64,000 nt of DNA from Chloropicon primus (taxonomy: Eukaryota > Chlorophyta > Chloropicophyceae > Chloropicales > Chloropicaceae): positions 186,001-250,000 of the forward strand of contig CP060767.1 in assembly GCA_023205875.1 (NCBI GenBank), in the 5' to 3' direction. The position numbers and the translations under genes are program-made. The notes under the pieces are model-generated. The model made no database searches. It saw only the letters and a list, made by a program, of their open reading frames with translations, and was not told where the DNA came from. This document shows, one piece after another, positions 141-58,766 of this stretch; the stretch's first letter is position 1; every line of letters begins with the position of its first letter.

Positions 141-745
141 CTCTCCAACTCTCTCTCTCTCTCTCTCTCTGCGCGCGTGCTCGAGACGGAGGACTTTCGG
201 GCACACCGCTTCGCCTCGTGCCTTTTGCGTTGGTTTTCAAATCAACCCACGCCAGCAGTTCCCTGTGGTGATGATGGGATGAATTAACTCGTGCGGGTTC
301 CTTCCATTCTTCTTCGCTCTTCTCGTAAAGGTACGACGCGAGGAGGTGAAAACGAAGGAGGAGACCTTTCCGAGGCCCTCTCCATGCTTCAGCTCATATC
401 TTCCCTCGTCGTCATCCGAAAAAGAAAACCTTTCATGCCCATCCAAAAAAAAGAAAAAGAAAAAAAAAACAGAGCAACGTTTCAGGTCGTCATGTCCTCA
501 AAACTGCGTCGTTTTTTTCGACCGAAGAGTCTTTGGAAAGATTAGAACGTAACGCTCTGATTGATCCTCTCCAACAAACGCGCCGACCTCTCGTTCGTCG
601 TCCATTCCACTCGGCGTACTCACCTCTCCCTCCTCGTCCACCCCGAAGTCACGAGGTTGTGGTTTTAGGTGTACGAGATCTGAGGCTCTCAGCTCTTCAG
701 CGAGCGGGCGGCGGGTGACGTCGATTACGGAGACGTGAAACAAAG
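141..745. other. 5' region of PP4R3: (CT)n tract, A-rich tract, one oriented intron-like unit
   Basis: No gene is supported here. There is a CT microsatellite at 147-172 and an A-rich run around 447-470. On the minus strand an AG|GTGAGT starts at 623 and is followed 83 nt later by a CTTTC element (5' end 540, to about 514). This is the same arrangement found upstream of other genes in the window. Confidence 0.6.
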
Positions 746-1311
746 GTGAGTGGAGGACGAGGAAGGTAGGGAGGAAGAAAGAGGGTGGGACTGACGGAAG
801 AGTCGTGTCGTGATCTTTCCAAAGACCCCTCGTTGGAAGATTTTGACGCCGTAATGAAGTTTTTAGAGACTGAATGGTGGATGCCGTTTCGTTTTTTTAT
901 TAGCTGGCCTTGGACGGAGGGAGAGACAGGTGAGTGGAGGAGGAGGACGGGGAGGGGGGCGAACGAGGGGGAGGGGACCGGAACCTTCGTCTGTTACTCT
1001 TTCTTTCGACCCCTCGGTCGAGGATTTCGACGCCTTGGGTGAGGGTTTTGAGGGAGATCTGTCCGTCCTGAAAGAGGGAGAGAAGAGGGGGAAGAGGGAG
1101 GGCGACAGAAGGCGGGGGAGAGGGCGACGGGGACGGTCGGGGTGCTGGACCGGGACGAAGCCTTCGGAATCATCGTCTTCTCCTCTTTCTTTCGACCTCT
1201 AGGTCGAGGATTTCGACGCCGTGGTGAGGATGGGAGACTGAGACTGACAGGGTTTTTTTCTTGTCTTTTGGCAAAACGCGCGGAGCAGAAGCCTTGTTGA
1301 GGCCAACACCC
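746..1311 (+). repeat. Array of three oriented CTTTC elements upstream of the stearoyl-ACP desaturase
   Basis: Elements start at 815, 1003 and 1189, spaced 188 and 186 bp. Donor-like AG|GTGAGTGG sequences start at 746 and 930, lying 69 and 73 nt before the first two elements, so the unit repeats at about 185 bp. The second and third copies lack four bases after CTTTC but keep the GAC-CCC-TCG-like register. Short open frames across this region are broken and low-complexity, so I do not call a gene. A possible acceptor, GGAGCAG, ends at 1288, 23 bp before the desaturase ATG, so the array may be 5'-UTR intron sequence. Confidence 0.7.
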
Positions 1312-2631
1312 ATGAAGGTGCAAGCAATGAGAAGTTTGAGCGGGAAGCCGGCGTGCACCTCTTCGAGGAGGTTTTCCTCGGTGAGCTGCAGGGCCACGGG
1401 GTCTGGCTCGGAGGGGGCGTCCTCGTACAGCAGCAGGAGGGAGAGCATGAAGGCGTCGATCAACCCGAGCGGGGCGAGGAGCCGCTTGGTGGCGCCGAAC
1501 GCGATCGAGGCGAGGCCGGACGTGGAAGCCCTGGAGAAGCTCGTGAGGAGCGAGGCGGCCCCCGACGCTTCCCCCGTTCTCATTTGCGGTCAAGTGTCTC
1601 ACTCGTTGACCAAGGAGAGGGAGGAGATCATACATAGCATGGAGGACTTCATGGAGGAGAAAGTGTACAAGTACCTGAAACCCGTGGAAAAGTGCTGGCA
1701 GGCGCAGGACTTCTTGCCGGACCCAGCGAGCGAGGACTTCATCCCGGAAATCCAAGCTTTGAGGGAGAGGACCCTCGCTCTGCCTGACGATTACTTGGTG
1801 GTGTTGGTGGGCGACATGGTGACCGAGGAGGCCCTGCCCACCTACATGAGCATGCTGAACACGATTGACGGGACTCGAGACGAGACCGGAAGCGACGACA
1901 CGGTCTGGGGGAAGTGGACGCGCGAGTGGACCGCGGAGGAGAACAGGCACGGAGACCTGCTGAACAAGTACCTTTACCTCAGCGGGAGGGTCGACATGAG
2001 GCAGATCGAGGTTACCATCCAGAACTTGATCGGGAGCGGCATGTGCCCCAAGACGGAAAACAACCCCTACCTCGGTTTCATGTACACCTCTTTCCAGGAG
2101 AGGGCGACCAAGGTTTCTCATGGCAACACGGGAAGGAGCGCGGCCAAGCACGGCGACCAGGCTCTTGCGAACATTTGCGCGCAGATCGCAAGCGACGAGG
2201 CGAGGCACGAGAAGGCGTACCAGCTGATTTGCGAGGAGCTCTTCAGGCTGGACCCTGACGGAATGATGATGGCCTTTGCCGACATGATGAAGAAGCAGAT
2301 CGTGATGCCCGCCCACATGATGGACGACGGCGTCCACACGTCGAGGGGGTCCGGGGCCGCGCTCTTCGAGGACTTTGAGAAGGTGGCCTACGCCACGGAG
2401 ACTTACACGACGGCAGACTACATCGACATCATTGACTACCTCATCAAGAGGTGGGACGTGGAGTCCATCAAGTGCTCCAGCGCGGACGGCCAGAAGTCGC
2501 AGGACTACGTGTGCAAGCTCCCAAACAGGCTGAGAAGGCTTGCGGAGAGGGCGGAGAAGAGGATGAAGAAAACAGCGAACAAGCAAGAAGTCAAATTTAG
2601 CTGGGTATACGACAGACCCATCTTTGTCTAA
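1312..2631 (+). CDS. Plastid stearoyl-ACP (acyl-ACP delta-9) desaturase
   Basis: A soluble di-iron enzyme that introduces the first double bond into stearoyl-ACP in the plastid stroma, using ferredoxin and O2, and so supplies oleate for lipids. The ATG at 1312 gives 439 aa in one exon. The first ~60 residues are Ser/Arg/Ala-rich with few acids, like a chloroplast transit peptide. The two iron-binding helices are clear: EENRH at about residues 209-213 and DEARH at about 295-299. The first ligand helix ([12 protein letters not shown]) precedes them. The C-terminus ends [11 protein letters not shown], as in plant desaturases. The frame is open further 5' to 1261 but without an ATG. Length is typical for the family (about 400 aa plus transit peptide). 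It is convergent with the secreted-protein gene downstream. Confidence 0.95.
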
Positions 2632-4413: not shown

Positions 4414-4446
<33 letters not shown>

Positions 4447-7113: not shown

Positions 7114-7284
7114 CTGTGGAGCAAAACACAAAACCAGCACCCTTTAGCTTCTTAAATCCTCAAACTCGAACCGTTCCTCGCGTGCGACCGGTCGTTGGAA
7201 GCGTCACGACCACGCGCTTCGAATGACACCGCCCTCTCTTCCTCGCGTTGCCGTTCACCTCGTCAAAACGTTGCACGAACTCAC
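7114..7284 (-). repeat. Intron-like unit 2 upstream of BET gene (candidate 5'-UTR intron)
   Basis: On the minus strand the unit starts GTGAGTTCGTGC at 7284. It carries a diverged CTTCCAA element at 7201, 83 nt in, and ends in a T-rich stretch and TTTTGCTCCACAG at 7114, giving 171 nt. Its donor directly abuts the TTCAG acceptor of the preceding unit. ATG of the BET gene lies 213 bp further on. Transcript evidence would be needed to call it an intron. Confidence 0.55.
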
Positions 7285-7945: not shown

Positions 7946-8099
7946 GGTCTATTCGCGACGGTCGTGAAGTGATCTCACGACAAGCAGGAAAGAGGTTGCA
8001 GACTTTGCTCGGCAGTCCTCCTGTAGCAGCAGAAGCACTCCAGCCTGGGTGGTTTCGGGAACCGACAAGCGTTACTGGTAACGCCTGAGAACGTGAGAG

Positions 8100-15469: not shown

Positions 15470-18400
15470 ATGAGGACCACGCTGACTTGGTCGGACAGCG
15501 TGCCGGAGCGCGATGACGTCCGTAACGTGTGTTATAACCTGGCGTTCAACCCGGATGGCACGCAGCTCGTCGCTGGGGTCGGGACTCGCGTGCTCGTGTA
15601 CGACGCCATGGACGGTGACCTCCTCCATAGCCTGAAGGGTCACAAGGATGCGGTGTACTGCATAGCGTATGCGAATGACGGGAAGAGGTTCGCCAGTGGA
15701 AGTGCGGACAAGAACGTGATCATCTGGACAAGCAAAGCGGAGGGGATACTGAGGTATTCTCACGATGACTCGATCCAGGCGTTGTCGTACAACCCCGTGA
15801 CCCAGCAGCTGGCCTCGGCGACCGCGAGTGACTTTGGGCTGTGGTCGCCCGAGCAGAAGAGCGTGACCAAGCAGAAGGTGGGATCCAAGGTGCTTTGCCT
15901 GGCTTGGACGAACGATGGGCAGTACCTGGCGCTGGGGCACTACAACGGGAACGTGAGCATCCGGGACAAGTCGGGGATGGAGAAAGTCTTGATCGAGAAG
16001 AGCGCGCAGGTGTGGTGCCTGACGTGGAACCCGAGCCGCTACGAGACGTACGACGTCTTGGCCGTGGGCTGCTTCAACGGGACCGTCTCCTTCTACCAGC
16101 TCTCCGGTGCCCAGCTGGGGAAGGAGGTGAAGCTGGGGTACGACCCGCTCTCGCTGAGCTACAGCACCGACGGGGAGTTCCTCAACGTGGGAGGAACGAA
16201 TAGAAAGGTGCAGCTTTACAGCAAGGAAGGGACGTTTTTGGGATCCACGACGGAGATGGACTCGTGGATCTGGTGCGTCAAGCCGAGGCCGAGGCACAAC
16301 TACCTTGCGATGGGATGCGAGGACGGCACCGTGGCGGTCCACCAGATATCCTTCTCCACGGTTCACGGCCTGTACAGGGACAGGTACGCTTACAGGGAGA
16401 ACATGACGGACGTGGTGGTGCAGAACTTGCTGAGCGAGCAGAAGGTCAGGATCAGGTGCAGGGACTGCGTCAAGCTCATTGCCATGTACAAGAACCGGCT
16501 GGCGGTGCAACTCACGGACCGCATCATCATTTACGAGGTCGAGAACTCGAGAGACTCTGGGAACATGAGTTACAGGGTGTTCACGAAGATCCCCCAGAAG
16601 CTCGAGTGCAACTTGCTGGTCGTGACCAGCCACCACTTCCTGCTTTGCTTGGAGAAGAAGCTCCAGATCTACACATTTCATGGCGTGAAGGAGAGGGAGT
16701 GGAACTTGGACTCGATCATTCGCTACATCAAGGTCATTGGCGGCCCGAGGAGGCGAGAGTCCATCCTCGTGGGACTGAAGAACGGGCTGGTGCTGAAGAT
16801 TTTCATCAACAACCCGTTCCCGGTGGAGCTGGTGAAGCACCCGGTCGCCGTGAGGTGCCTCGACCTGTCCGCCTCTCGGCAGAAGCTCGCCATAGTGGAC
16901 GAGAACGCGAAGATTTACGTGTACAACCTCAAGGGAAGCTTCGTGAAGAACCCAAAGACCGGGGAGAAGCAGATGTTGATGGAGGCCAAGGAGCTCTTCT
17001 TGGACGAAGGGGCGACGAGCGTGGCCTGGAACTCTGACTTCGAGGACATGCTGTGCTACACCGGGAGGAACACGCTGAACATCAAGACCGGGGACTTTCC
17101 CGTGCACTCTCAGAAGCTCTCTGGCTTCGTGGTAGGGTTCATGTCCTCCAAGATCTTTTGCTTGCACTACCAGACGATGGAGACGATTGATGTCCCGCAG
17201 TCTGTGAGCATGAACCGCTACTTGGAGATCGGGGACTACAAGAGGGCCTACCAGGTCGCCTGCCTGGGCGTCTCCGAGGAAGACTGGAGGCACTTGGGAA
17301 TGCAGGCACTTCAGCAGAACCAGATAGAGACTGCCCGCAACGCCTTTGTCAGAATCTGCGACATCAAGAGCATCTCCTTGCTGAGCTACGTGGAGCAGGA
17401 GCTCGTCTCGAGCAGCGGGAACCTTGGAATCGCCAAGAAGCTGGTCAAGGCGAAGATGCTGGCTTTCCAGGGGAGGTACCAAGAAGCCGCTCGGATGTAC
17501 GCCGAGTGCAATAGGGTCGAGCGAGCCATGGAGATGTTCAGCGACCTGAGGCAGTTTGAGGAGGCAAAGCAGTGGGCGGAGCAGTACTCTCACAACAAGG
17601 AGGCGCAAGTGGAATCCGTAAGAGAGGTCATTCAGCGCCAAGCGCAGTGGAGCGAGGAAGTCAACGACTTCGAGGCCGCTGGGGAGATGTACATGAAAGC
17701 CAAGAACTACGAGAAGGCCGCGGCTCTGTTCATCCACCAGAATTTGAACAACAAGCTGATCGAGATCGTGCGCATCTTGCCGTCCTCCGCTGGATCACAG
17801 AAGCTGCTGAATACGATAGCCGCCCACTTTGTCAAGTCCTGCGATGCCCATGCAGCAAAAGCAAGCAAGGCGGCCACGCAGGAGGTGAGCAGCAGCCCCA
17901 AGGACGGCGACGCCATCAGCTTCAGTTATGCCAAGGAAGTCTTCGTGAAGATGGACGACCTTTCGTCCCTCGTGGAGCTCTGCATCAAGCACGCCAAGTG
18001 GGACGATGCGATCTCCATCGCCAAGCAGAAGAACTCCAAGGCAATGATCTCAAAGGTCTACATCTCGCACGCCAGGTGGCTTGCTGAGAATGACCAGTTC
18101 GAGGCCGCGAGGAAGTCCTACCTGCTCGCGGGAAGGCCGGAGGAGGCCACGCAGATGCTGGAGGAGATGTGCGACAACGCCATCACGGAAGACAGGTATC
18201 TTGACGCATCATTCTACTTTTACCAGCTGGCCATGGATACTGCGATGATCTACGAGGAGGAGCACGAGCTCAAAGGCCAGCAGGGGGTAGGGAATTTTCA
18301 GAAGAATTTTCAGAAGAAGTTCGACCGGTTTTACCACCTCGCCGAGGTTTGCTATGCTTACCACTACGTGCTGCAGTCCGTGAGGGAGCCATTCACGGAT

Positions 18401-19711
18401 GCGTTGCCCAGTGTCCTTTACAACATGGCCTGCTTCCTCGTTCTCAAAGTAGTCTCCAGGGAGACGCAATCCAAGCCGATCCTTGAGCCCCCAAAGGGGA
18501 TGAGCACCGTTACGATCCTGCAGTGCCTTGCCAAGTACGCGGAGCAGATGGGAGCTTACAATCTCGCGAGGTTCGTGTACAACAGACTCGGTTCGCTCAA
18601 CATGTGCAACCCAAAGCACCAGGAGAACAACGACTTGCTCTCCCTGGCCGTGAGGGCCAAGCCCTTCAAGGACAGGGAGAGCTTGCTTCCCGTCTGCTTC
18701 CTTTGCGGCTCCCAGAACCCGAATGTGGGGTCGAGGCAGAGCGTGAGCTCGGAGGACGTCTGTCATTCCTGCGGCACCAAGTTCGAGAGGAGCTTTGCGA
18801 CCTTTGAGTACCTACCCGTCGTGGAGTTTCACCTTGCCCCGGGCATAGATGAGAGGGAGGCCATCCACCTGCTGAAGGAGGCCTGCGAGCCCTCCAGCCA
18901 CCCTGAGGATGGTATGGACAGTGGTGGCATGGCGCACCACGGCGGTGGCTACGGCTATGACCAGGGGGGAGGCTCTTCAGCGGGCGAAGTTGACGAGGGT
19001 CAGCAGGTTCTGAGTTTGGACACGGACATGGAAGAAGCGAGCAAACTTGTGGACCAGCAGCTCAGGCAGAGTGGGAACGGGTACCCTTCTGCCTCTGGGA
19101 TGTCCCAAATGCAGTCCGTGATCGGAAGAGAAGAGTTGAAGCAGATGCACGCCTCGGAGGTCATCGTTCACCGTTGGCCAGGCAAGATTCACAAGACGAA
19201 GTTTTTCAGGGTGTTGGATCCGGATGCCCAAGTCATGCTGGGAAGCTGCGGTCACTTTTATGAGCAGGACGAGTACGAGATGTTCCTCCTCGAGAAGGGC
19301 ATCGCTCCATTCTCCAGGGTGCCCATGGACCAGTCCAGTGCGGAAAAGATGGACCTCGGGTACGTGTCTGGCATGCTGGAAGCGGAGGGCGACAGCGACG
19401 GCGACGTTGCTGAGAGTCGCGGGGCCTCTGACGCCTCCGATGCTTTGGACCCCTACAGAAGCAAAGGCAGGGGTGGAAAGAAAAGATCTGGGAATTATCA
19501 CATGGACGGGGAGAACCAGGGAGGCACGAGATTCTCGTCGCACTCAAAGAAGGTTGAAGCGGCTGCCGCGCTCGTCGCGAATTCTCTGGAGAACCAGAGC
19601 TACAGGCAGAACCACAAAGTGGAGAGCCAGTTTGGCTCGGTCGTGATGAAGCCTTCCCAAATGGGTGGTGCCATACCTCCGCGGCCCCAAAGCAGGGGCG
19701 TCCAGAGGTGA
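15470..19711 (+). CDS. IFT122: Intraflagellar transport protein 122 (IFT-A complex)
   Basis: Core IFT-A subunit for retrograde transport and membrane-protein import in cilia. The ATG at 15470 gives MRTTLTWSD, which aligns with the human start MRAVLTWRD; the frame is open 5' to 15362 but without ATG. The protein has 1413 aa in a single exon. The first WD40 propeller (~15-320) includes [20 protein letters not shown] and [13 protein letters not shown]. A second propeller (~330-610) has [19 protein letters not shown] and [20 protein letters not shown]. A long TPR solenoid runs ~615-1060. A C-terminal zinc-binding pair, CFLCG and CHSCG, lies at ~1075-1103. It is about 170 aa longer than human IFT122 because of a disordered Ser/Asp-rich tail (~1300-1413). 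Its presence implies a ciliated stage. Confidence 0.97.
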   Translation: [1413 protein letters not shown]

Positions 19712-20906: not shown

Positions 20907-21750
20907 GTTTCCAATGAACCCTCACTTGAAAGGAAGAGAAGAGGTCTGGGGAGGACAGACAGTTGGCCAAGGTGAGTGGGAGGGAGAGGGAGAGGGGAGA
21001 GGAGAGAAGGTGGGTGGGTGTTTGATGAGGGAGGGGAGTGGTGCGGATGGAACTGATTTGTCTTGCTCTTTCCAATGAACCCTCACTTGAAAGGAAGAGA
21101 AGAGGTCTGGGGAGGACAGACAGTTGGCCAAGGTGAGTGGGAGAGAGAGGGAGAGGGAGAGAGGAGAGGAGAGAAGGTGGGTGGGTGTTTGATGAGGGAG
21201 GGGAGTGGTGCGGATGGAACTGATTTGTCTTGCTCTTTCCAATGAACCCTCACTTGAAAGGAAGAGAAGAGGTCTGGGGAGGACAGACAGTTGGCCAAGG
21301 TGAGTGGGAGAGGGAGGGAGAGGGAGAGAGGAGAGGAGAGAGGGTGGGTGTGTGTTTGATGAGGGAGGGGAGTGGTGCGGATGGAACTGATTTGTCTTGC
21401 TCTTTCCAATGAACCCTCACTTGAAAGGAAGAGAAGAGGTCTGGGGAGGACAGACAGTTGGCCAAGGTGAGTGGGAGAGAGAGGGAGAGGGAGAGAGGAG
21501 AGGAGAGAGGGTGGGTGGGTGTTTGATGAGGGAGGGGAGTGGTGCGGATGGAACTGATTTGTCTTGCTCTTTCCAATGAACCCTCACTTGAAAGGAAGAG
21601 AAGAGGTCTGGGGAGGACTGGAGGGACAGAGTTGTACAGAGGACCAAGGGGGTGAGTGAGTGCAGTGATGGAGGAGTGTTGAAACAGGTGATACTGACGT
21701 GCCTTCACCTTTGTGTGTCTTGATCCTTCCAAGGAAGTCTCACTTGACAA
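20907..21750 (+). repeat. Tandem array of 161-167-bp units, each with one CTTTC element and one GTGAGTGG
   Basis: Four near-identical units plus a partial fifth. Elements start at 20907 (first base G), 21068, 21235, 21402 and 21569, spaced 161, 167, 167 and 167 bp. A diverged sixth lies at 21725, 156 bp on. Each unit contains AAGGTGAGTGGGAG (donor-like starts at 20972, 21133, 21300 and 21467), and a further GTGAGT at 21652 lies 73 nt before the last element. The units differ mainly in GGGAGA length, as expected of recent unequal duplication. The array fills the UBC13/secreted-protein divergent region and points to the secreted-protein gene. Frames repeated in it are not genes. Confidence 0.9.
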
Positions 21751-22005
21751 TACTGGACAGATAGAGAACATCTCGAGGGAGAGGAGCTGGGAGAGAGAGA
21801 GAGAGAGAGAGAAGAGTGCCAGGAGGTCTCGCTGGTGAGGACAGACCTGTGGTTGGTACCAAAGGTGACGTCTTTGGTGGCGCAAGCAGCATCGAACTCG
21901 CCACGGCATGTCTCGGCGGCGGCGGGTCACGACACCCCTCCACTATCATGATGGGATCAGCCTGTTTTGATTCTCGTTGACCTGGCCTCGTGTGTGTGGC
22001 TCAGC

Positions 22006-23528: not shown

Positions 23529-24429
23529 GGGTGAGCGAGAGGCAACCTTGGAACGAATCGTGATTATCATCTTGCAGTCATTGGGAAGTGCTCGTTAACC
23601 TGGGAATGTATCCTATTCTACTCCTCTGATGACCCCAATGACATCCCTACTCGTTCCAGAGCGAAACCAAAGAAAGGAGAACTCGCTGCTCATCATGGTC
23701 CTTCCTCACTCACTCATGATCCCAGGCTTGTTCCCAGGCAAGGATCAGGAGCTTTTCAGGAGAGAGAGAGATTGCCCATCAATCTTGAATCTTGGGAGGG
23801 ACAATCCCAATTCCCGGAGCCTACTCCAGGATCAAAGAAGAAACCCGATTCTCCTTCGTCCTTCCGCTTCCTCACTCACTCACTCATGATCCCAGGCTTG
23901 TTCCCAGGCAAGGATCAGGAGCTTTTGAGAGAAAGGAAAGGGAGCTCCCCAATCTTAAATCTTGGGAGGGACAATCCCAATTCCCGGAGCCTACTCCAGG
24001 ATCAAAGAAGAAACCCGATTCTCCTTCGTCCTTCCGCTTCCTCACTCACTCACTCATGATCCCAGGCTTGTTCCCAGGCAAGGATCAGGAGCTTTTGAGA
24101 GAAAGGAAAGGGAGCTCCCCAATCTTGAATCTTGGGAGGGACAATCCCAATTCCCGGAGCCTACTCCAGGATCAAAGAAGAAACCCGATTCTCCTTCGTC
24201 CTTCGCTTCCTTCCTCACACATGAGTGGTTGGTTTCCCGGCAAACTCGCAAACTTGGGGGTCATTTCGTGTATAATTAACGTCTATCATGGAATATATTT
24301 TCGCGCCAATCGAGACTCGTTTGAAATTCGATTCAAATTCGACAGCCCAGAGGAAGAGAAGCAGAACACACGACGACGCTGTCGACGAAGGACGAAGACG
24401 ACGAGGACGAAGAGTAACGTGAAGCCACA
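23529..24429. repeat. 900-bp region upstream of H2A.Z with three 170-bp tandem repeats
   Basis: Copies begin with CACTCATGATCCCAGGC at 23711, 23881 and 24051, an exact 170-bp spacing; the third runs to about 24210. Each unit contains AATCTTGGGAGGGACAATCC, then TACTCCAGGATCAAAGAAG, then CCTTCGTCCTTCCGCTTCC. Unlike the other arrays it lacks the CTTTC element, but the period is the same. Frames across it repeat with the unit and are not genes. From 24290 the sequence turns AT-rich with an ATTCGATTCAAATTCG-like repeat close to the H2A.Z start. Confidence 0.85.
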
Positions 24430-26856: not shown

Positions 26857-28022
26857 ATGATGCTTACGGGAGCGACGCGTCGGTTAAACCTGCGACGAGG
26901 AGCGTTACTTTTCAACGTCGCGTCGTCCTCCTCCGTGAGGAATCCTGTTGGCGTTGGAAGAAAGGGAAAGGTGAACTGGATGCCGCGATGCAGTGGAGCA
27001 CGAGGTGAGTTTGAGAGAGTTCCAGGCGGAGAGGAAGGGAAAAGTGGTGTGAGATGGAGTGAGAGATGGAACCGCTTTGTGATTCTCTTTCGAAGGAGCC
27101 GCCGCTTGGGAGGAGTGACGCAAGGGTGAGGAAATGAACAACTAAAAAGCATGATGATCTGCTTGGCATTGCAGGGGACACTGTGGACGTGTACTGGATC
27201 GGACTGGACAAGTACGGAGGTTGTGACGGTTTGATCAAGGTGGTGGGCGAGAGGTACCTCTGCGAGGAGGACTGGGAGGTTGTGGAGTCAACGAAGGATG
27301 AGAGAACCAAGGTGCAGCGGCTGGTGAGCAGAGCGCTGAGGAGGTGGGTGCTGGCACAGTACGAAGGTGTTGAAGGGAAGGAGCTGGCGTTCGGGAAGGA
27401 TGACAAGGGGAAGCCCTACTTGAGGGGTAGCAGGACGGGGGTTGAGTTCAATGTCACGCACACCCCATCCGTTGCGAGCGTCTGCGTGGGCAGGGACCGG
27501 GCCGTTGGGGTGGACGCCGAGACCACCAGCAGGAGAACGAAGGGGGGGGTGGAGAGGATTGCGAAGAGGTGGTTCTCTCAGCGGGAGCTCTCGAAGCTCG
27601 AAGATATGGACTCACCAGGTGGCACGAGCGAGGTTCCCAGAATGAGGAGGTTCTACCGCCTTTGGACGCTGAAAGAAGCGTTTCTGAAGGCCACGGGACT
27701 GGGCATCAGCTCAGGCATCAGCCTGCGGCGATGTGCGTTCGACTTTGAGGACGAGGAGGTCGAAACGGGCGAGTCCATATCGACCAAGATTCGATTTGAG
27801 ATTCTCGGTGGTGAACGGGGGGGCTCGGACAACCCCGTGCCGCCTGAACCCACGTTGCTTGGGGAGGATTGGGGCTTTGCCACGTTCGAACCCAGGCGGG
27901 GCGACATCATTTCCCTTTGCTGGAGGAGGAAGGAGGACGAGAGCGCACAAGAGACCAAGGATACGCTCGTTAGGCCATTCATTTGTACGATAACACCAGA
28001 GGGTGAGATAACAAGCATGTAA
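26857..28022 (+). CDS. Sfp-type 4'-phosphopantetheinyl transferase
   Basis: Transfers phosphopantetheine from CoA to carrier-protein serines, activating acyl or peptidyl carrier proteins. Exon 1 is 26857-27004 and exon 2 27175-28022 (GTGAGT to TTGCAG); phase 1 joins exactly to give 331 aa. Without exon 1 there is no ATG before the conserved start DVYWIGLDKY. Exon 1 encodes a basic, Ser/Arg-rich leader (TRRLNLRRGALLFNVASSSS) that looks like an organelle-targeting peptide. Mg-binding GVDAE is at ~161-165 and WTLKEAFLKATG at ~213-224; the middle Glu/RF segment is RIAKRWFSQREL. Other starts are possible at 26818. Its intron is a full member of the dispersed unit family. The organelle address is inferred only. 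Confidence 0.9.
27005..27174 (+). repeat. PPTase intron: coding-region member of the intron-like repeat family
   Basis: Starts GTGAGTTTGAGAG, carries an element at 27087 (82 nt in; CTT-TCG-AAG-GAG-CCG-CCG-CTT) and ends GCTTGGCATTGCAG: 170 nt. Exons on both sides encode one protein in matching phase, so this unit is very likely spliced. Its start resembles the GTGAGTTTGG starts seen at 41607 (-) and 58146 (+). Confidence 0.8.
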
Positions 28023-30196: not shown

Positions 30197-31234
30197 ATGG
30201 CGGTGACAGGGGAAGCGAGCGAGAGGCCGAGGGCGGAGGGAAGGGATGCGTTGGACGTGCTGCCAGAGGCCTTGTGGCTCATCATCGAAAAGCACGTGCG
30301 CCCCTACGACCGGATCGCTTTCGCGCTGACCTGCAGGACCTTCCTCGAGTCGGCGTGGACGACGGCAGCGAGCCTTAACGAGAAGGAGGAGAAGCCTCTT
30401 CCTCTGAGGACGGACCTGACGGACGGCAAGGTTTTCGAGCAGATGCCTTGCTTCAGCATGGGTTGGTTCCAGTGAGTGTTTCACTCTTTCAAGAGGAAGA
30501 AGGGAGCGGCGAAAGATCAGAGAGATGGGGAGTACCTCGACCACTTCTATGACGCTGACCTGCTGCACCTCGCTGCTTCCCAAGGCAGCAAGAAGGTGGT
30601 GAAGTGGTTGGTGAGTCAAGGAATCCCTTTGAATGTGACGTGCAGGGGTGGCGTATTGGGCTCTGAAGCGGTTTACGGAGTGGCAGCTCGAGCTGCTACT
30701 GCTGGCGGACATATTGAGACATTGGAATGGTAGAGGAGCGAGGGGTGCGAGTTCGATGAGAATACTTGTAGATTTGCAGCTGAAGGAGGTCACCTTGATG
30801 TCCTGCAGTGGGTTCGAAGCCAGAATCCGCCTTGCCCTTGGGAAGCGAACACTTGTAGAGGGACAGCTTACAGAGGTCACCTTTATGTTCTCAAGTGGGC
30901 TCGAAGCCAGGATCCGCCTTGCCCTTGGGACGAGGAGACTTGTTCTTATGCAGCTATTGGAGGTCGCCTTGACATGCTGCAGTGGGCTCGAAGCCAGGAT
31001 CCGCCTTGCCCTTGGGATCCAGAGGACTGCATAGAAATGGCCAATAGAACGGAGGACTTCCACGTCGTCGATTGGGTTGACACCTGGCTTTTCGAGATTG
31101 AGAGTTTTAGGAGGCGCACACAAATTGCACGTACGAACCTTTGCTTGGTATTAGTTTTCGTTTTCGTTCATGTTTTCGTTTATGTTTTAGTCACTTTGTT
31201 GGTTGGCGAGCGATCCATGGCTCATCAAGGCTGA
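30197..31234 (+). pseudogene. F-box/ankyrin-repeat protein gene with two in-frame stops
   Basis: One frame runs from the ATG at 30197 to a TGA at 31232 (346 codons) but is cut by TGA at 30473-30475 and TAG at 30731-30733. The first replaces the expected Trp after MGWFQ, the second the expected Leu in EWLRSE; each is one base from a sense codon. The N-terminus is F-box-like (LDVLPEALWLIIEKHV with LTCRTF). Then come VVKWLVSQGIPLN and GHIETLEW, and three 29-residue ankyrin units GHLDVLQWVRSQNPPCPW, GHLYVLKWARSQDPPCPW and GRLDMLQWARSQDPPCPW. No frameshift is seen, so inactivation is recent or the stops are assembly errors. No splice sites would remove both stops neatly. An intact member would likely be a ubiquitin-ligase adaptor (family inference). 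Confidence 0.82.
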
Positions 31235-44624: not shown

Positions 44625-47600
44625 CTAGATCGTGGCGGCTTGCTTGGGAAGGGGGTGGAGGTGACTGAGGTCCCGGAATTCTTCCTTGGTGGACAAGGGG
44701 TCCTCCTTCCCTTGGGGAGACCCCGTCGTCGTCGTGGCGCGGGCGAGCAGGGCGGCCAGGCAGCGAAGCAGCACGGCCGCGGCTTTGTACGCCCAGAACA
44801 GGAGCGGGCTCAGGAATATCAGCATCATGGTGGCGAACAAGATTCCGTACAAGATCTTTTCGGATGCGCACGCGCCAAGGAACTTGACGCAGACCTTCTT
44901 CTCCCCCCCGGAGCCAGCTTCAGCTCGCGGCCGTTGGTCGATCGTGATGTTCATGGAGCGGGAGTGGCTGGCGTAGTAGTTGAGGTTCCCGTCGCCGTCT
45001 CGAGAGAGGCCAGGCTTCAAGTCCATGTCAGTGACCTTGATGGAAAATTTTTCCACCCCTCCTCGAGTCAGGGCGGTGTACGTGAGGTTGCCCAGCACCT
45101 CGTTCACTTTCTGCAGGGAGCCGCGGAAGACCATCTTGCCGTCGTCGTGGCCGTCCCCCATGGCAAAAGTGAGGTAGCTCAGGGCCTCAACGTGCGATCC
45201 GACGTCGAGAACGCCGGCCGTGACGTACAGATCGACAAGGAAGAGGTCCATGTGCTTGTCGGGATCCCTGATCGCCAGCCTCGGCACCGGCACGGGCTGC
45301 AGGAAGGTTGCCGTCATGTTCACTCGGCTCAAAAGAATCTGCGACTCATCCTCGGTGTTTGTGACCTTGAGCTCCACGGCGTACGCCGCTGACCGGCAGC
45401 AGCTCGTGGTGACCTCGTAGGCGAAGGACTCGCGGGGGGGCCTCTCCCGAATCCCCAAGTCTGCGAACTTCTCGGGTTGAGAACCTCCAAGCAGGTCGGG
45501 GTCGTTGAAAAAATTGTCGGAGGGAACGTAAACGAAAGATACGCAGGCACTCCGGGCGTCACGTTGTCCATCGCAGGCCCCGAGCCATTCCCGTGGCTGC
45601 TGGCCCTTCAGCACTGCAACGAGATCAGATTTGCTGCTGCCTTCCGAAGACTGTCGTGAGCGGTAGTAGAGGTCTCCGTATTCAGGAAGGGAGAGAATGC
45701 GCATGCCAAGGTCTTCCTCGGACTCGGCGCGGGCATCGCTGAGAGTCAAGTTGATCCACGCTTCCCCTTCCTCGTCACAAGCAACTGTCTTGTTGATGCC
45801 GATCAAGGGGTTGAGGACATGGATGTGGAGCTCCGAAGTGTTGGTTGAGGTGACGTTGTGCGAGTCTACCACGCCGAAGGAGATGGAGTCCGTGGCCACG
45901 GTGTCCTTGCCCTCCCGGAGTCCAGCCAAGGCCTCCGGCTCATCTTCGAATGCGTAGCATGCCACCTGCCCAGTCAATCTGTGCGCCTGGACAGCGACGG
46001 CGTCTCCAAGAAGAAGGCCACCCTCCTCATCTCGAGCGCATTCGTACAGCGTGCCGTGCCTTGGCAACTTCACAATGTCGATGGCCTCGATGTCGCCCGT
46101 GCCATCAGGGTCCAAGCCGGGAAAGTTGACCATGGAAAGCTTGCCGAGGTAAACCGGTTCCACAGATTCCTGGGGCGCGGGGGGATCGTTCTTGCTGAGA
46201 ACCTCGACAAGCACCGTCCCCTCTGTACTGCAGTGTCCTTCCTCGTCGCAAGCCTTGTACCTGAAGAAAGTGTACGGCTGAAGGTCGGTGCCGCCGGGCT
46301 GAGGAGGAGAGAAGTCGTCTTTCTCCGGTATGAAGGAGACGTTAAAGAAGCGCTTCCCCAGCTTCTTTCCACCGCCTTCCCAAATCTCGGCCAGTCCTTC
46401 ACCCAATGCGTGGGGCTCCCCCTCGGTCACATTGATGACTTGGCCGGTCCTCGGATCCACGAGTTGCCCGGCATCGACGGACCGCGTGATGTAAAAGTAC
46501 CTGGAGAGTCACGGAGGTATAGTGTGGAAAGGAAAGGGCGTCGTAAGTCATTCTACTCGCAGGACCGTCAAGTGAGAGGTCTCCTCATCCGTGGACGGTT
46601 TACTTACATCGTCGAGTTGCCGGCGTTCGGACGGTGCGCAATGTCAAAATCAAAACCTTGGATGGTAACGGACGCCACCTCGTCCTCCATCACTCGAGAA
46701 ACTCCCGATTCGATCACGGGCGAGGACGGGGCGAGGCCAGCTCGCTCGCGGTGCCTTGACCTCACCCCGGACCCGGGCAAGACGCCAACAAAAGTGCTTA
46801 CGGCATGGATGGTCCCCCGCCAACGCGTGCCGAAGACGGAAGGGCTACCGAGAACCAAGCGGTGCGTCTCGTTCCAGGCACTGAGGAACGAGTCTTCCAA
46901 ACCAACTCGGCCGTGGAGCTCCGGGAGCGTTTCACTCAGGAGCTCTCCATCGAAGTACAGCCTGAGTGCTCCTGCTCCCCGCGTTGCGTTGTCTTCGCCC
47001 GGAGGACCGGCGACGCTGGAGGAGGGTGCAAGGTCCTCCACCGTCAGCGCAATGTGGTGCGGAGAAGCCGCGAAGACGTTTGCCTGGACCTCCCCCCCCT
47101 GTTCACTCTCCTCTCGGACGTAAAATTCGACTCCATCACTCGTCTTGTGGCAAACTTTGTGCCCTCTGTGCGCCCGCCCACGCGCCTCGGCAACGAGTGA
47201 TGGACCCCTCTGCCTCACTTGAAGGCTGAAAGGGCTCCAGCCCAAAGAGCAAGACGTGTTGGTGTTCGTTCCACCGTCCCATGAAGCCGTCCCAATCCCA
47301 AAGATGGCATCTTCCTTGCTCCAGTCCTTGAGACTCTCTCCATCGAACGTCACCCACACCTCCAACGAGAGGCCTCTCCTCTGCCTGACGTGACTCAGGA
47401 GCTCCGAGGCGTCCCTCGTCGACGACACCAAGGCGACAGAGCCGTCGCCATCGAGGCCAGATACATCACGAGACCCCTCGCTCCCTCGCACCGTCAAGCC
47501 CACGCTCTCGGGACAGTGAAGGATCCCGAAGCTCACTTCCACATTCGTTGCAGTCAAGTTGCCCAAGTAGCCAGCAGACTCCTCGCTCGTCGTCGTCGTC

Positions 47601-57000: not shown

Positions 57001-57260
57001 CCGCTGACCTTGAGGACGATCTTGCCGTAGATCAGATTCATCCAGGGTATCTGAAGCTGCAGCTGCTCAATCTCCCCGCTCTCGATGGCCACGGGAAGCT
57101 TCAGCCCAGGGATGCGCTCCACCGCCCTGCACCTCAAGCTCACGTTCGACATGCTCACCCCGCTCCGAAGGCTGAACCGAAAGTTCTCCCTGACGTCCAC
57201 GAACTGCCCTATTGCGGATGTCAGCATGTCTTGCAACCAACGCTGCGCCCAGCCCAACAT
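48006..57260 (-). CDS. VPS13-family bridge-like lipid transfer protein
   Basis: Rod-shaped protein that channels phospholipids between membranes at organelle contact sites. A single 9255-bp exon codes for 3084 aa from the ATG at 57260; the frame is open further but without ATG. The N-terminal chorein region is MLTSAIGQFVDVRENFRFSL followed by PGLKLPVAIESGEIEQLQLQ. A long beta-rich groove fills most of the length. The VAB/SHR-binding region is around ~1600-2000, with ITSAKFTPYWLQNQTGLNVG and ISITNSCGFCIQVGSCSPLA. The C-terminal amphipathic/ATG2-C part (~2760-2940) has AVGLLQSALTLGVGQFTAGL and GIGGLIAAPIHGMEQNGLKG. A PH-like end follows. Length fits VPS13 (about 3100-4000 aa). No intron is needed, which is striking for a gene this long. 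Confidence 0.94.
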   Translation of the reverse strand: MLGWAQRWLQDMLTSAIGQFVDVRENFRFSLRSGVSMSNVSLRCRAVERIPGLKLPVAIESGEIEQLQLQIPWMNLIYGKIVLKVSGVEVVFRERSEWEWEGELARARAEAQKQALLGKFEIELLARALQESRDGESARADGFGEGFEEEPSARGKKSTGSFNFGSLTTSLLSKVGKVLLAKLVICVENVHIQYQDSSHLAKEDDLEQLDAITANLMRSSSYPTSAEHLPAEDLTEEEEEDVKVFGLRLSRLESIQEDSRLSECSPTTVVTLSELSIYTCSVQSTERSKSGMFASTSAEGGNAAGTAQQNILEPMSCTISVNVYHGDQESSNPDFYDVRCQLNHVHLNIDNELLRALIVVVDKLEIWELRSLYGRFRPARWRTLASGGKRTASAGSSAGSQWAKQGWKYALAGVLQGINSRHSKAKRLKNLRLKYPYSYGKYIELYKQRLIQLASGQKKRHEVGFVNFLEEFEEKEDVENILALRSHVGNTMGADWLSRVHGQDSKSVQDSVLSSFWSNWMTSDKDSTSPTENNFSKLEEIYDKLVEQMPRTPRASNTSQGLSNSEVVCRLQLGIGTVEMDVSDRANPLMQVGISDTQCRLEVLESNVTKASMRARAMYLKAGESTIVRQMDTIGDEDFLDLNVEILNVGEESHLSLKVSCIVRPLVCSIPPDEAIERLLAFEVPTIETYHLSWLLSANQLESRIARSHAKAQYLMQYPYVNFQLILSEVCFIVRGESDESLVFRARGASVTSARHDVLESSSKARLALHALKNNIDSAPEMVEEHVMYHRLNCTVAEVDVELARDEPESRRLHFQDKLMSTSLWTEVELLLLPDDKTQAVCKANVDFSNLKIKVSSLSLRESLGIVSHNMEKLSSFSSHDKVSPEIDESQGSSGSLIEVRVRLPSVLVDLHGFQGIPKPLRDHLRLAIKGLKAGVQSNLVEDECFVSICSIKLEQKTGPATYTLLNLSLQELIREIPNSPVRAPESSDLYKNASSSFEKVTPEKKGKQLFKGTLNEKTWISSSLSFAMFEKKDEKDEKTVVFNAFCARINTRLIECALNVTERVGNLFDGNSSGDCAPEDRSRLIEAQRGPSSAIAKPGKKVTIHVTVTNYKLETDVVGGEELCLITIPKMNLTMLTIADQLKSVEMLEEALSVSLRSSKGNHLLVEKFDVSTKLTFHQQPADGAGRGASTALDLWINVPQLEISLHEEDTKTLYCLFDTFSFLDDHHGRGEGKPPQQSTGSAFPSVINVALEIKFLQCEIFGRQKELGSIVGLSEELYVQVNLADSAISSFECGWRFLGLFMSTRDKSCIPSRILLASLQPKQHGNEIPIIETNAHSGNPETMELLVKNVQVNINAFCWDKFFLLIDQIETGGLKEVDASGEEQGPAAPKSGRTQGYKCFAEDLEISINFEDYYEVKSPPVLIRTKLEFALVNEFNKRRVDLEVNHLLLDVPLKGLEEDENGELSSFKTFAFFDDLSLTLSLSEKSVDGFVDLGSLSLWVSHQNLSFLNMALSSFKDKSAEDSGEAKEKDSSSEVSIDIAFTSKKFAALFSDDRFQRDSPIAEIAVYDIRTKYAADPSSLTECSVNFKTVVDFYNYDKVAWEPVVEEWPLQIYYQSSDRSNSRRKVTPSHKLMVQSKSQWNINVSEYTIETANILRQMLESLKMVSGTEVCTPRITSAKFTPYWLQNQTGLNVGYCFTDGSSSSADLSELRNKEEGQAPDENLVPLYIRKSSGRGGRHVSYKHMSKKIAARRSLVVSQNNDQRWVSGRRPVIHFKIRGSTWSESVAMNTYAKHRISLENVEGMNHKKVDVLCDVQRRANGGRLIVLHSCISITNSCGFCIQVGSCSPLALEPNCIRTLVPGESFWVPLQISLTGSVCLRMILDSDEHTAWSQRMNLDQFVRGKNKEKIFLGNCIRGSKGAVLSFIIFTDRDGSHFKLRVEPPVKVRNWLPVPLDSVLYRGDKQLLKSNIDPDSSLNIHNVRNSNELSLFLRPRGYNWGESIGIPFSCRKEDLDRGGASPAVRESSVVLQGSDGDDGAKIALEVKYVGNAPMILQISCPLRIYNHTGLNLGVRDRGQESSFQQVLPYGGESDVPDLVGLGSMVSGKLESEPVGLGLFATFVDDEDGGDKQKFGSDLLAYEKSPRSEKQQACGQQWPTMFGLKSYRNNVRLQLRVKPDPRVETVMTSKIFNVDVLGEPTVVEVGTSEGQQSSRRPKAYFFTVSTEISTFGGSSIGVHIRPRFILTNKLDKEIMYRQEGTKIKHTLKAGGSQAIHADVASETPKLCVKLEDNAVWSGYFHLDKPGGIQMKMTGSGQEESMMLQVDVRELSFETWTISISEYQAGFAPYRIDNFTSDILSYFQQNCEPAEGMLKPYSSAVYTWDEPYMSHKLVIKLPGYGNLGSFALDKVGSVHVVSVPVHTGAHLNRNVSRNLQIATKADGPTRVLSISDLSIHMPRRDTSRLPLSNKLMRMTKMDKKTTKEDVPPAQEDSVYFLDIQVSHLGLSVIGKSSEILYLSMLDLQLKFEGGEERDVVTFKTRRIQIDNMLPNAALPVLLSIPAPLYQQDTISSASDGILFKLSYWHANVANIMCVESAVVKVPPILLDMDGSIFLRLHHFSEVLSWVEETSSLTRVSSASSMNGKEEESPGYRLHFECIKISPIHITVSLSTAGLTSGETFTLSENPKGVNAQLLYALTFAEFEGVKVLLSGFELNHAFIDKGTLQWLLGKHYIKALLKEAVKILGSANVLGDPLGLVQHLGTGMWDFLSKPAVGLLQSALTLGVGQFTAGLSAGSWSLLSHTVYALSNAAWKISKTAHRNVNVVKTRCDMIINSSLPLHKHIDKESNPSMIGAVSRGIGGLIAAPIHGMEQNGLKGLVEGTTFGVLGAIASPTVTLLEFAQHTSKVLRDVAKSGILKASRMRPPRKVSEDLPLSSYMLNEALGNLLLATVSNGRFKREEQMFSCLLDNACCILVTTKHVMSVRTTASYDFTVEWLYSLGDIIEQTREGSKVTLTVLLPLQHISSVNDNLNLEPSFGLPICQKQVDFPTQSDAEVFEDCLACNEPEISSPSKVPLLTMTSASEERNAL

Positions 57261-58145
57261 CTCTTTCGTTCCCCTCCACGAAGCTCGGCCACAGAAACTC
57301 GAAGTCACACCAGAGGTCCTGGGGTGTTTTCCACCTCAAGAGAACTTTCCAAACTCCTCTCCCTCTTCCCCTCTCAAGGGAACAAAGAAACTATCGAATT
57401 GCAGCCACGATCCATCGAGACGCTGCCCTCTCGTGCCCTCCTCCCACGCTGCCCTCCACATGCCTCCCTCCTCCCTCGTCGTGCGCACACGGGGGCACAC
57501 CACCAACCGCCGTCCGCGACCGCGAAGCGACGAATGCTGGACGCCAAGCCCGTTGAGTGAGGCTGACGATCGATCGATCGCGAGGTCTGGACCCTCTAGC
57601 GGACCACAAACACCTTCGCCGCCGTCCCACCTCCCTCGACCCAAGTCCTCTGCTAACGCTTCCGAGGCCCTGCGAGAGACGCCGCTCCAGAGAAATCGAT
57701 CACCCCTGAGGCCAAACAGGTCAACCGAGGGGTCAACGCAAAGATCGTGAGGCGTTCTTTCGATCTACGCAACCCACCGTCACGTCTTGACCTCGAAGCT
57801 TGCTGTGCTGTGCCTTCGAACGCAAGCCAGGCGCCAGGAACCACACCGCAGTGCCGCTTTACAAAGTTTCTCACCGACGGCGAACCCTAGAGCCAAATCC
57901 TTCAACCGAGGGATCAACACAAAGCTCGTGAGATGCTCTTTCGAATGAGACCCTACTTTCTCCACGACTGCCTTCCCCTCGTCGCTTGTCTTCGATCGAA
58001 GCCGCGCCAACGCTCGCGCTCCAAGGTTGGCTCCTGGTCCACCACTCAATTTTCCCCCTCAATCTCGGTACACCCAAGATTAGACTAATTCGTTAAATCC
58101 TCGGAACTCGTTGACTGAGGGTGGGTTGGACATTGGCAAAGGCAG
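57261..58145 (-). repeat. 5' region of VPS13 with two extended element copies, 181 bp apart
   Basis: Minus-strand elements begin at 57924 and 57743. They share more flank than other copies: TCGAAAGA before, CTCACGA next, then CTTTGYGTTGAYCCCTCGG and GGC after. The copies are 451-664 bp from the VPS13 ATG. Near-AG GTGAGAAAC lies at about 57874. Frames that seem to repeat here (…SKEHLTSF and …SKERLTIF) come from the duplication, not from a gene. Confidence 0.7.
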
Positions 58146-58766
58146 GTGAGTTTGGAGCGATGGGGACGACGAGGACGACGATACACGCGATGGAGAGTGA
58201 TTTTTGTCGAAGAATTGTGGTTTTCTCTTTCAAATGAGCCCTCGCTTGCGAAGAATGGCGTACTTTTGCGGAAGGGAGAGCTAAATGTTTTGTGTTGATG
58301 CCTTTTTTTTTGCTCTGTGCTTGCCAGGCAGGTTAGTTGTGGACCAGGGAGAGCGGGGAGGGGGGCGTCAAGGGAAGCGTGGTGGGATTGACTTCGAGAT
58401 TGCTGTGCCTTTCGAAAGACCTCTGACTCGAGAGGAGTGGCTCAGGGACAAGGGAAGAAGAAATATTAGTACTAGTACTGGAAGTACTGACAAACTCAGT
58501 CTGGGTCTGTGGTCTCGTTTTGGTTCTCGAAGAAGAAGAGGAGTTTGGGTTGAGGGGGAGCGCGAGACCTCCGTCTGCTTCTCTTTCGATTGACACCACC
58601 CTCGAGTTGCCCACCTTGGGAGCCGTGTGTTGTGTGTGTGTGTGTGAGAGAGAGCCTGTGAGGAGGCCAGCAGGATAGAGCGAACAGCAGGTTGGAGGAG
58701 TTATGTTGTTCGAGCACTAGGTTGCCGGCAACGGGTGGTTCAGGCTTCGGAACAAGTGCAGAGAGC
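58146..58766 (+). repeat. Array of three oriented elements upstream of the filamin-repeat gene
   Basis: Elements start at 58227, 58409 and 58583 (spacing 182 and 174 bp). Donor-like CAG|GTGAGTTTGG at 58146 and CAG|GTTAGT at 58332 lie 81 and 77 nt before the first two. The second is preceded by a strong pyrimidine run (TTTTTTTTGCTCTGTGCTTG) and CCAGGCAG, so it looks like a 3' splice site fused to a 5' splice site. The ATG at 58767 is 184 bp after the last element. An acceptor-like AAGTGCAG ends at 58761. A (TG)n run lies near 58627-58647. Confidence 0.75.

What the first reader, a model, noticed from the sequence alone, without database searches (positions are those of the whole stretch)
514..58612. 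A dispersed promoter-side element (about 30 copies) shared by most genes in the window
Seen directly: an element of about 26-36 bp that begins CTTTC, continues SAAN, has core GANCCCTC and ends near TTGAAGG or TCGAGG, often followed by TTTGGC or TTTGAC. Plus-strand 5' ends: 815, 1003, 1189, 7722, 7905, 15347, 20907, 21068, 21235, 21402, 21569, 21725, 26523, 27087, 29936 (short form), 30117, 32295, 44130, 58227, 58409, 58583. Minus-strand 5' ends: 540, 7201 and 7377 (diverged), 15054 (diverged), 41361, 41536, 43796, 57743, 57924, and a core only at 46590. None lies inside a major coding exon. I know of no described green-algal promoter or repeat family with this sequence.
Basis: seen in the sequence. 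Interest (0 to 1): 0.92.

Follow-up and report, generated by a model that had tools for sequence, protein, structure and literature searches.

The report
Nucleosome-length promoter module in green alga
A tiny marine green alga carries thousands of copies of an apparently undescribed DNA module in front of and at the very start of its genes; each is about the length that wraps one nucleosome and holds the same palindromic site, so the alga may write the packaging of its gene starts into its DNA.

Summary
A profile recovers 28 of 31 listed copies; 29936, 15054 and 46590 fail. The conserved part is ~54 bp around a near-palindrome, CTTTCGAnnGAnnnnTCnnTCGAAAG. I extrapolate ~3,700 copies genome-wide (527 exact core matches against 2 backwards). 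Copies avoid coding exons, point outward from shared promoters (17 back-to-back pairs, 0 facing), and repeat every ~180 bp even where flanks show no similarity. About one third, not most, of sampled ORFs have one.

New: averaged over copies, ~150 bp around the motif shows 10.3-bp A/T versus G/C periodicity in register with it, fading outside: the sequence signature of a positioned nucleosome. A splice-donor-like site lies ~82 bp upstream in 35 of 91 units; one unit forms a 170-bp intron whose removal joins a phosphopantetheinyl-transferase frame.

Best explanation: a nucleosome-length promoter-proximal cassette that sets the first nucleosomes and holds a site for an unknown dimeric factor; copies inside transcripts are spliced out as leader introns. 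Tests speak against an RNA hairpin, satellite leftovers, typical introners and the plant TTNGATYTG element. No chromatin or RNA data were available.

The parts
507..560 (-). unit core, CTTTC at 540; donor-like GT 83 bp upstream; upstream of the gene starting at 140 (-)
   Evidence: 48.0 bits
795..848 (+). unit 1 of 3-unit array before the fatty acid desaturase gene (ATG 1312); donor-like GTGAGT at 746
   Evidence: 58.2 bits
979..1032 (+). unit 2 of array (CTTTC at 999; reader gave 1003)
   Evidence: 48.4 bits
1165..1218 (+). unit 3 of array (CTTTC at 1185; reader gave 1189)
   Evidence: 47.1 bits
746..1288 (+). candidate leader intron spanning the array: GTGAGT ... CTGAC, T-run, CAG; ATG at 1312
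   Evidence: read from sequence; splicing inferred
7169..7222 (-). unit of 2-unit array before the BET-bromodomain gene (start 6901, -); donor-like site at -82
   Evidence: 26.0 bits
7345..7398 (-). unit of the same array; donor-like site at -82
   Evidence: 28.4 bits
7702..7755 (+). unit of 2-unit array before the CBF/Mak21 gene (ATG 8100); no donor-like site
   Evidence: 49.8 bits
7885..7938 (+). unit of the same array
   Evidence: 51.9 bits
15327..15380 (+). single unit before the IFT122-like gene (ATG 15470); donor-like site at -84
   Evidence: 52.2 bits
20887..21758 (+). array of 6 units (CTTTC at 20907, 21068, 21235, 21402, 21569, 21725), 161/167/167/167/156 bp apart, before the ORF at 22006
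   Evidence: 17.8 to 45.4 bits
26503..26556 (+). weak unit
   Evidence: 19.9 bits
27005..27174 (+). 170-bp GT-AG intron holding a unit in its middle (CTTTC at 27087); removing it joins a frame with ATG at 26857 to a phosphopantetheinyl-transferase ORF
   Evidence: unit 36.8 bits
30097..30150 (+). single unit (CTTTC at 30117)
   Evidence: 44.4 bits
32275..32328 (+). single unit before the ORF at 32423
   Evidence: 52.7 bits
41328..41381 (-). unit of 2-unit array before the WD40/Sec16-domain gene (start 40883, -); full palindrome pattern
   Evidence: 53.7 bits
41503..41556 (-). unit of the same array; full palindrome pattern; donor-like site at -71
   Evidence: 59.8 bits
43763..43816 (-). single unit before the gene starting at 43468 (-)
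   Evidence: 36.3 bits
44110..44163 (+). single unit; no called same-strand ORF start nearby (14.6 kb to the next)
   Evidence: 51.2 bits
57710..57763 (-). unit of 2-unit array before the gene starting at 57260 (-)
   Evidence: 46.5 bits
57891..57944 (-). unit of the same array
   Evidence: 47.2 bits
58207..58260 (+). unit 1 of 3-unit array before the ORF at 58767; donor-like site at -81
   Evidence: 48.7 bits
58389..58442 (+). unit 2 of that array
   Evidence: 31.3 bits
58563..58616 (+). unit 3 of that array (weak)
   Evidence: 20.8 bits

Best explanation
It is a promoter-proximal cis-regulatory cassette of nucleosome length. Each ~180-bp unit holds ~150 bp of DNA whose A/T and G/C steps tend to alternate every 10.3 bp, which would fix the rotational setting of one nucleosome, and carries a 26-bp palindrome about two helical turns from the inferred nucleosome centre. 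One to six units stand head to tail, pointing into the gene, so the first nucleosomes at the gene start would be written into the DNA with a factor site at the same place in each. A dimeric DNA-binding factor (inferred, not identified) reads the palindrome, either on the nucleosome or in competition with it, and so sets how readily the promoter opens. Units that lie inside the transcript are removed as leader or first introns, with the 5' splice site and the branch point/3' splice site near the two edges of the nucleosome-length stretch. Shown from sequence: motif, orientation, spacing, palindrome, averaged periodicity, co-occurrence of splice signals, one intron that joins a known enzyme frame. 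Inferred: nucleosome occupancy, factor binding, splicing of the other units, effect on transcription.
For: Position: 75 of 77 sites outside coding calls, 60 of them within 1 kb upstream of a same-strand start. Orientation: of 43 adjacent pairs 40-600 bp apart, 17 are back to back, 26 head to tail, 0 face each other. Spacing: whole genome, 76 second copies at 162-187 bp against 12 at 132-161 and 12 at 188-217; 18 adjacent pairs whose 5' flanks are no more alike than chance still lie 179.5 +/- 6.9 bp apart. Core against flanks: 8 non-identical adjacent pairs keep 80-89% core identity; the 5' flanks of 6 of the 8 stay within the random range. Nucleosome signature: (WW minus SS) at 10.3 bp holds one phase (5.0-7.3 bp) in the 41-bp windows centred from -90 to +60 and is lost from +70; the left flank and positions beyond +39 were not used to build the profile. 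Similar phases appear in the 20 C14 units and the 46 others (no p computed) and in units with and without donors. Head-to-head copies lie 235-346 bp apart in 17 of 19 cases. Palindrome: 49% self-complement matches against 25% in shifted frames. Splice signals: GGTGAGT 62-92 bp upstream 63 sense against 1 antisense genome-wide; units with a donor more often have a branch-point-like site (21/35 against 11/56) and branch point plus YAG (13/35 against 3/56); the intron at 27005-27174 joins a PPTase frame that is otherwise interrupted.
Against: No MNase, ATAC, RNA or binding data. The 10.3-bp signal is a population average: per-sequence autocorrelation in the left flank is weak, SS alone is not significant in +36..+66 (p = 0.22), and inside the core other periods are significant too because the motif itself is aligned; periods 9.5 and 11.5 also exceed the null in the flanks; the AA-class right flank reaches only p = 0.10. 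Part of it could be inherited from a common ancestor. Flank lookalikes: 3' flanks of 3 of the 8 conserved pairs exceed the random 95% point, and 13 of 25 adjacent pairs have cores no more alike than the random 95% point. 56 of 91 units lack a donor-like site; first units of arrays do not have donors more often than later ones (11/19 against 12/25), and last units have branch points less often, not more (5/19 against 14/25). Only about one third of sampled ORFs have a copy. Transcription starts are unknown. A 38-bit motif cannot be explained by histone preference alone, so an unidentified factor is needed.
Confidence: 0.55

Rival explanations
1. A conventional promoter element: a barrier factor binds the motif in nucleosome-free or linker DNA and the ~180-bp spacing only reflects whole nucleosomes fitting between bound sites.
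For: Long palindromic motif, promoter position, nucleosome-repeat spacing held without flank similarity.
Against: The averaged 10.3-bp periodicity runs around the motif (about -85 to +65) and is absent from +70 to +130, where this model puts the nucleosome. With ~180-bp spacing and 147-bp nucleosomes about 33 bp of linker is left, less than the 54-bp motif (arithmetic).
Confidence: 0.25
2. An old introner family: a mobile intron of nucleosome length that spread into leaders and first introns; the core is what remains of the element.
For: 35 of 91 units carry a donor-like site at a set distance, 13 of these also a branch point plus YAG; one unit is a 170-bp intron; introners often lie in nucleosome linkers (PMC9860276, passages seen).
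Against: Of 31 candidate CDS-internal introns 30 score below 5 bits and the other overlaps the 20907 array (the finder gives false introns and missed the one at 27005). Copies at different genes share the core but not full length. Units without donors have similar periodicity.
Confidence: 0.12
3. An RNA-level element in the 5' leader: a hairpin or splicing/translation signal in the transcript.
For: Sense orientation; CTTTCGA and TCGAAAG could pair.
Against: Paired columns show no covariation (Watson-Crick/GU counts close to those expected from independent columns); no Rfam family in the window; similar periodicity in units without donors.
Confidence: 0.05
4. Plain tandem duplication: a satellite that happens to sit in intergenic DNA.
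For: A few arrays are recent tandem copies (20908-21618, 97% match).
Against: Most adjacent pairs have flanks at chance similarity but the same spacing (20 of 25 5' flanks at or below the random 95% point); orientation toward genes, 0 facing pairs.
Confidence: 0.03

Closest known systems
Intron-mediated enhancement elements of plants (TTNGATYTG; Gallegos and Rose 2019, PMC6760150: abstract, outline and Discussion seen)
   Same: Short motif repeated in promoter-proximal introns and leaders near the 5' end; effect grows with copy number; need not be spliced to act.
   Different: TTNGATYTG itself occurs 0 times in 87 cores (0.4 expected by chance), so it is not the conserved sequence. The plant element is 9 bp, with no 180-bp spacing described in what I read. 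Activity not tested here.
First-intron words of Arabidopsis (PMC8157754, passages seen)
   Same: One of their five consensus words, TTTCGA, is at the centre of this motif.
   Different: The match rests mainly on that one word (45 of 97 hits), shows no strand preference (97 sense, 108 antisense), and against a CpG-keeping null p = 0.013. No palindrome or nucleosome-length unit in the passages seen.
Downstream GATC motif of vascular plants (PMC11525189, passages seen)
   Same: Position-dependent, downstream of the start, dose-dependent.
   Different: GATC is only mildly enriched here (48 against 28 expected); the passages describe conservation in vascular plants, weaker outside flowering plants.
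Introners (PMC9860276, passages seen)
   Same: Many intron copies in one genome, tied to nucleosome linkers.
   Different: Not in the internal CDS intron candidates, no full-length family similarity, majority without donor-like sites.
Nucleosome-length satellite with a protein box, such as alpha satellite with the CENP-B box (recalled, no call)
   Same: Nucleosome-length tandem unit with a protein site at a fixed place in it.
   Different: There centromeric and in long arrays; here dispersed over gene starts in arrays of 1-6.

Membership tests
Sequence-encoded nucleosome positioning element | WW and SS dinucleotides alternating in antiphase at about 10 bp over about 147 bp | tested here: met
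   averaged (WW minus SS) holds one phase from about -85 to +65 and is lost outside; WW and SS half a period apart in the left flank; but SS alone not significant in +36..+66 and the core is not independent evidence
Sequence-encoded nucleosome positioning element | a positioned nucleosome in cells or in vitro | not testable with these tools
   needs MNase-seq or reconstitution
Dimeric transcription-factor site | dyad-symmetric, information-rich DNA motif without RNA-type covariation | tested here: met
   26-bp palindrome; no pair covariation
Dimeric transcription-factor site | a protein that binds it | not testable with these tools
   no factor identified
Plant intron-mediated enhancement motif | sequence TTNGATYTG | tested here: not met
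   0 of 87 cores
Plant intron-mediated enhancement motif | located in promoter-proximal introns, not internal ones | tested here: inconclusive
   35 of 91 units have a donor-like site and internal candidates lack the motif, but 56 of 91 have no donor and start sites are unknown
Introner | near-identical full-length intron copies, also inside coding genes | tested here: not met
   core-only similarity between genes; 30 of 31 internal intron candidates below 5 bits, the other lies in the 20907 array
Introner | target-site duplications or terminal inverted repeats | not tested
   no empty sites available
Structured RNA | compensatory base changes or a known family | tested here: not met

The most novel reading that the evidence does not exclude
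In this lineage the first nucleosomes of about a third of the genes or more are encoded by copies of one DNA module, each with a factor-binding palindrome at the same superhelical place, and repeat number sets promoter strength. That would be a digital, DNA-written chromatin code at gene starts, unlike known eukaryotic promoters, where downstream arrays are laid out mainly by remodellers (recalled).
Probability: 0.3. Interest if true: 0.93.

Novelty: new variant of a known kind. Interest (0 to 1): 0.77.

Why it matters
Whether DNA sequence or remodelling enzymes set nucleosome positions at gene starts is a long-standing question. Here is a small, complete eukaryotic genome in which thousands of gene-start nucleosomes may be written in one recognisable module, in arrays of one to six, together with a factor site and, in many copies, splice-like sites at the edges. 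It also offers a test of intron-mediated enhancement in the green lineage and a 26-bp palindrome with which to fish out the factor.

Tried and rejected
RNA hairpin: rejected, no covariation at the CTTTCGA/TCGAAAG arms; no Rfam match in the window. Relatives elsewhere: strict motif patterns 0 in viral contigs. One genome-contig match (L022, a Planctomicrobium bin), taken as chance because I compute about 0.5 expected (own arithmetic); not examined further. One tandem-pattern match in a viral contig (L028): the profile score at the match is negative, and the contig holds 17 ORFs of 150 aa or more; taken as chance. No other alga's genome could be searched. Arabidopsis intron words: suggestive only through TTTCGA. 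'First unit of an array carries the donor, last unit the acceptor': not supported. Poly-T downstream as a fixed part: TTTTTT is enriched at +65..+90 among 63 units, but T5 runs are not tied to donors (7/35 against 6/56) and only 8 of 67 de-duplicated units have an onset in +40..+125, so not claimed. Two classes of units (AA or TT at +27/+28): AA has donors more often (20/37 against 8/34), but the periodicity is alike.

Limits: gene calls are ORFs with codon scoring, without introns or RNA data. The five loci were chosen for rich matches, so they serve anatomy only, not density. Rows dropped: one search used 63 non-redundant units of 28 bits or more out of 77; one search used 67 of 77 (25 bits or more, with flanks); one search used 91 of 94 with flanks; searches used 67, 66 and 68 units after removing similar ones; alignment A1 holds 63 of the 87 non-redundant units, and the model built from it was never used in a search. 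In divergent regions a site usually has a start on both sides: of 44 sites, 19 had both a sense and an antisense start within 1 kb, 13 sense only, 9 antisense only, 3 none. Statements about absence in print rest, in an open-licence library only; the two Chloropicon genome papers were seen as passages, not whole.
Full report
What and where. The window is G000:C14:186001-250000 of a 17,584,162-base genome in 20 contigs. Size, number of chromosomes and the length of C1 (1,855,637) equal those published for Chloropicon primus RCC138 (PMC12301720, passages seen). The species name is an inference from exact sizes.

Checking the observation. Of 31 listed copies, 28 are recovered by a profile and three are not (the profile was seeded on these copies). 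The profile spans -20 to +39 around CTTTC; -20..+33 holds about 38 bits. Consensus: TCGAAGCGTCGTCTCTTGATCTTTCGATTGACCCCTCGCTCGAAAGGATTGGCG, with A or T about equally common at +7. A profile made from window copies alone finds 38 positions above 20 bits in 180 kb of other chromosomes and none in five Markov versions; extrapolated, about 3,700 per genome. Pattern searches of the whole genome agree that it is no chance: 870 against 1, 527 against 2, 921 against 1. In the last, palindromic copies count on both strands; 19 such pairs stand among the 100 rows listed.

Distribution. In 264 kb, 75 of 77 sites lie outside coding calls; 60 of the 75 are within 1 kb upstream of a same-strand ORF start. 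In 18 independent loci, density is 1.12 per kb between divergent genes, 0.26 between tandem genes, 0.31 between convergent genes (2 copies in 6.4 kb), 0.74 in unclassified ends and 0.017 in coding calls. Of 44 sites there at the 10-bit cut, 32 have a sense start within 1 kb (19 of them also an antisense one), 9 only an antisense start and 3 none; gene calls are crude, so some of the 12 may face uncalled genes. Orientation is plainer from the copies themselves: of 43 adjacent pairs 40-600 bp apart, 17 stand back to back, 26 head to tail and none face to face. 22 of 71 ORFs with enough upstream sequence have a sense copy within 800 bp.

Arrays. In 314 kb (the 264 kb plus 50 kb chosen for rich matches) 91 usable units form 47 single places, 15 pairs, 3 triplets and one array of five (that window array has a sixth, weaker unit at 20907). 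Spacings run from 156 to 191 bp, 21 of 25 between 174 and 191. Genome-wide, a second copy follows at 162-187 bp 76 times, against 12 at 132-161 and 12 at 188-217. Eighteen adjacent pairs have 5' flanks no more alike than random pairs by ungapped comparison, yet keep 179.5 +/- 6.9 bp. With gapped alignment, 20 of 25 5' flanks are at or below the random 95% point (0.67). Eight non-identical pairs keep 80-89% core identity; their 5' flanks are 0.60-0.67 in six and 0.72-0.73 in two, and 3 of their 8 3' flanks exceed the random 95% point (0.65). In 13 of 25 pairs the cores are no more alike than the random 95% point (0.72). So spacing is held generally, and in some arrays the core is held while the flanks have drifted. 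Head-to-head copies across divergent promoters lie 235-346 bp apart in 17 of 19 cases.

Palindrome. The centre reads CTTTCGAnnGAnnnnTCnnTCGAAAG. Self-complementarity of the 26 bp is 49%, against 25% in shifted frames. Paired columns do not covary, which fits a DNA site for a dimer and not an RNA stem. The strongest couplings are between neighbouring bases, above all +27/+28, mostly TT or AA (53 of 63).

Nucleosome signature. After removing similar units, A/T steps minus G/C steps were averaged in register with the motif. At 10.3 bp the phase stays between 5.0 and 7.3 in every 41-bp window centred from -90 to +60, and the amplitude falls to background from +70 on and at -100 to -120; a weaker rise with another phase lies near -140. 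Against a jitter null, windows from -80 to -20 and +10 to +50 reach p < 1/200; amplitude dips around -10 to 0 (p = 0.09 and 0.02). In the left flank, which was not used to make the profile, WW and SS are half a period apart (p < 1/400 each); in +36..+66 WW is significant (p = 0.003) and SS is not (p = 0.22). Inside the core other periods are significant too, so the core is not independent evidence. Similar phases recur in 20 units of C14 and 46 of other loci, and in 22 units with and 46 without donors (the AA class alone gives p = 0.10 on the right). The stretch is about 150 bp. Inference from established nucleosome rules (A/T steps where the minor groove faces inward, recalled): possible centres are at about -8.5 and +12; the middle of the periodic stretch and the amplitude dip favour -8.5, which puts the palindrome's centre (+12.5) two turns away.

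Splice signals. GGTRAG occurs 60-105 bp upstream in 27 of 67 units and its reverse complement in none; in five other windows of equal length it occurs in 3 to 8 of 67. Genome-wide GGTGAGT at 62-92 bp is 63 sense against 1 antisense. Units with the donor more often have a branch-point-like site and a branch point plus YAG downstream (21/35 against 11/56; 13/35 against 3/56). At 27005-27174 the unit makes a 170-bp GT-AG intron. Unspliced, the frame from ATG 26857 meets a stop; spliced, it runs into a 4'-phosphopantetheinyl transferase (Pfam ACPS, 2e-17). The splice itself is predicted, not observed. I read this as: units inside the transcript sit in leader or first introns, and the majority without donors are either upstream of the start or unspliced.

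Mechanism. Best supported: a nucleosome-length promoter-proximal cassette with a factor site at a fixed nucleosomal place, repeated in phase. I put 0.55 on it. The main rival (0.25) puts the motif in linker DNA; the extent of the periodicity and the short linker speak against it. An old introner origin (0.12) could be true of the cassette's history without being its present function.

Comparison with what is known. It works most like the plant downstream elements behind intron-mediated enhancement (PMC6760150, abstract and Discussion seen; PMC11525189 and PMC8157754, passages), which act from transcribed DNA near the start in a copy-number-dependent way. It is not the same sequence: TTNGATYTG is absent from 87 cores. 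In Chlamydomonas the search for a consensus motif in enhancing introns gave no significant result (PMC7419008, passages), so a defined element in another green alga would be useful. In the two Chloropicon genome papers 'promoter' does not occur; 'motif' occurs once, for RWP-RK proteins, and 'tandem', looked for in the newer paper only, does not occur. Searches for Chloropicon with introner and with nucleosome listed no paper whose title or abstract is about this. Novelty rating: new variant of a known kind, since promoter elements and nucleosome-positioning sequences are known kinds, although I know of no family that combines them this way.

Changes made on checking: 'nearly all toward a start' became counts with a direct orientation count added; the information content is 38 bits, not 36; the ATG is 26857; the array ends at 21758; the periodicity is stated as an average with its non-significant parts.

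Noticed in passing
window 23705-24218: A different tandem array, 170 bp x 3 (95% alike), with no copy of the motif, upstream of an ORF at 24431 that starts like a small ribosomal protein (recalled, not searched).
   Followed up: partly
window 15470-19711 (+): IFT122-like intraflagellar transport gene (Pfam 5e-117) in a genus I recall as lacking flagella; may hint at a hidden flagellate stage.
   Followed up: no
L014 minus strand, upstream of the gene starting at 8808: Two units look like consecutive introns separated by an 11-base exon (cag|CATCTTCAAAG|gtaag), then cag shortly before the ATG: possible leader micro-exons (by eye).
   Followed up: partly
window 30786-31017; L012 6146-9325; L020 5993-6411; L026 4418-5198: Tandem repeats of 87 bp (29 codons), possibly a family of repeat proteins with 29-residue units; translation not checked.
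   Followed up: no
window 57891-57944 and L003 594-663: Some TT-class units run into CTCTAGGGTTCG just after the motif, similar to the telomeric unit (TT)TTTAGG of this genus and to plant telo-boxes (recalled).
   Followed up: no
G000:C13:443021-443564, C18:415468-416428, C19:386427-386968: Places with several nearly identical units in a row, suggesting recent array expansion on chromosomes 13, 18 and 19.
   Followed up: no
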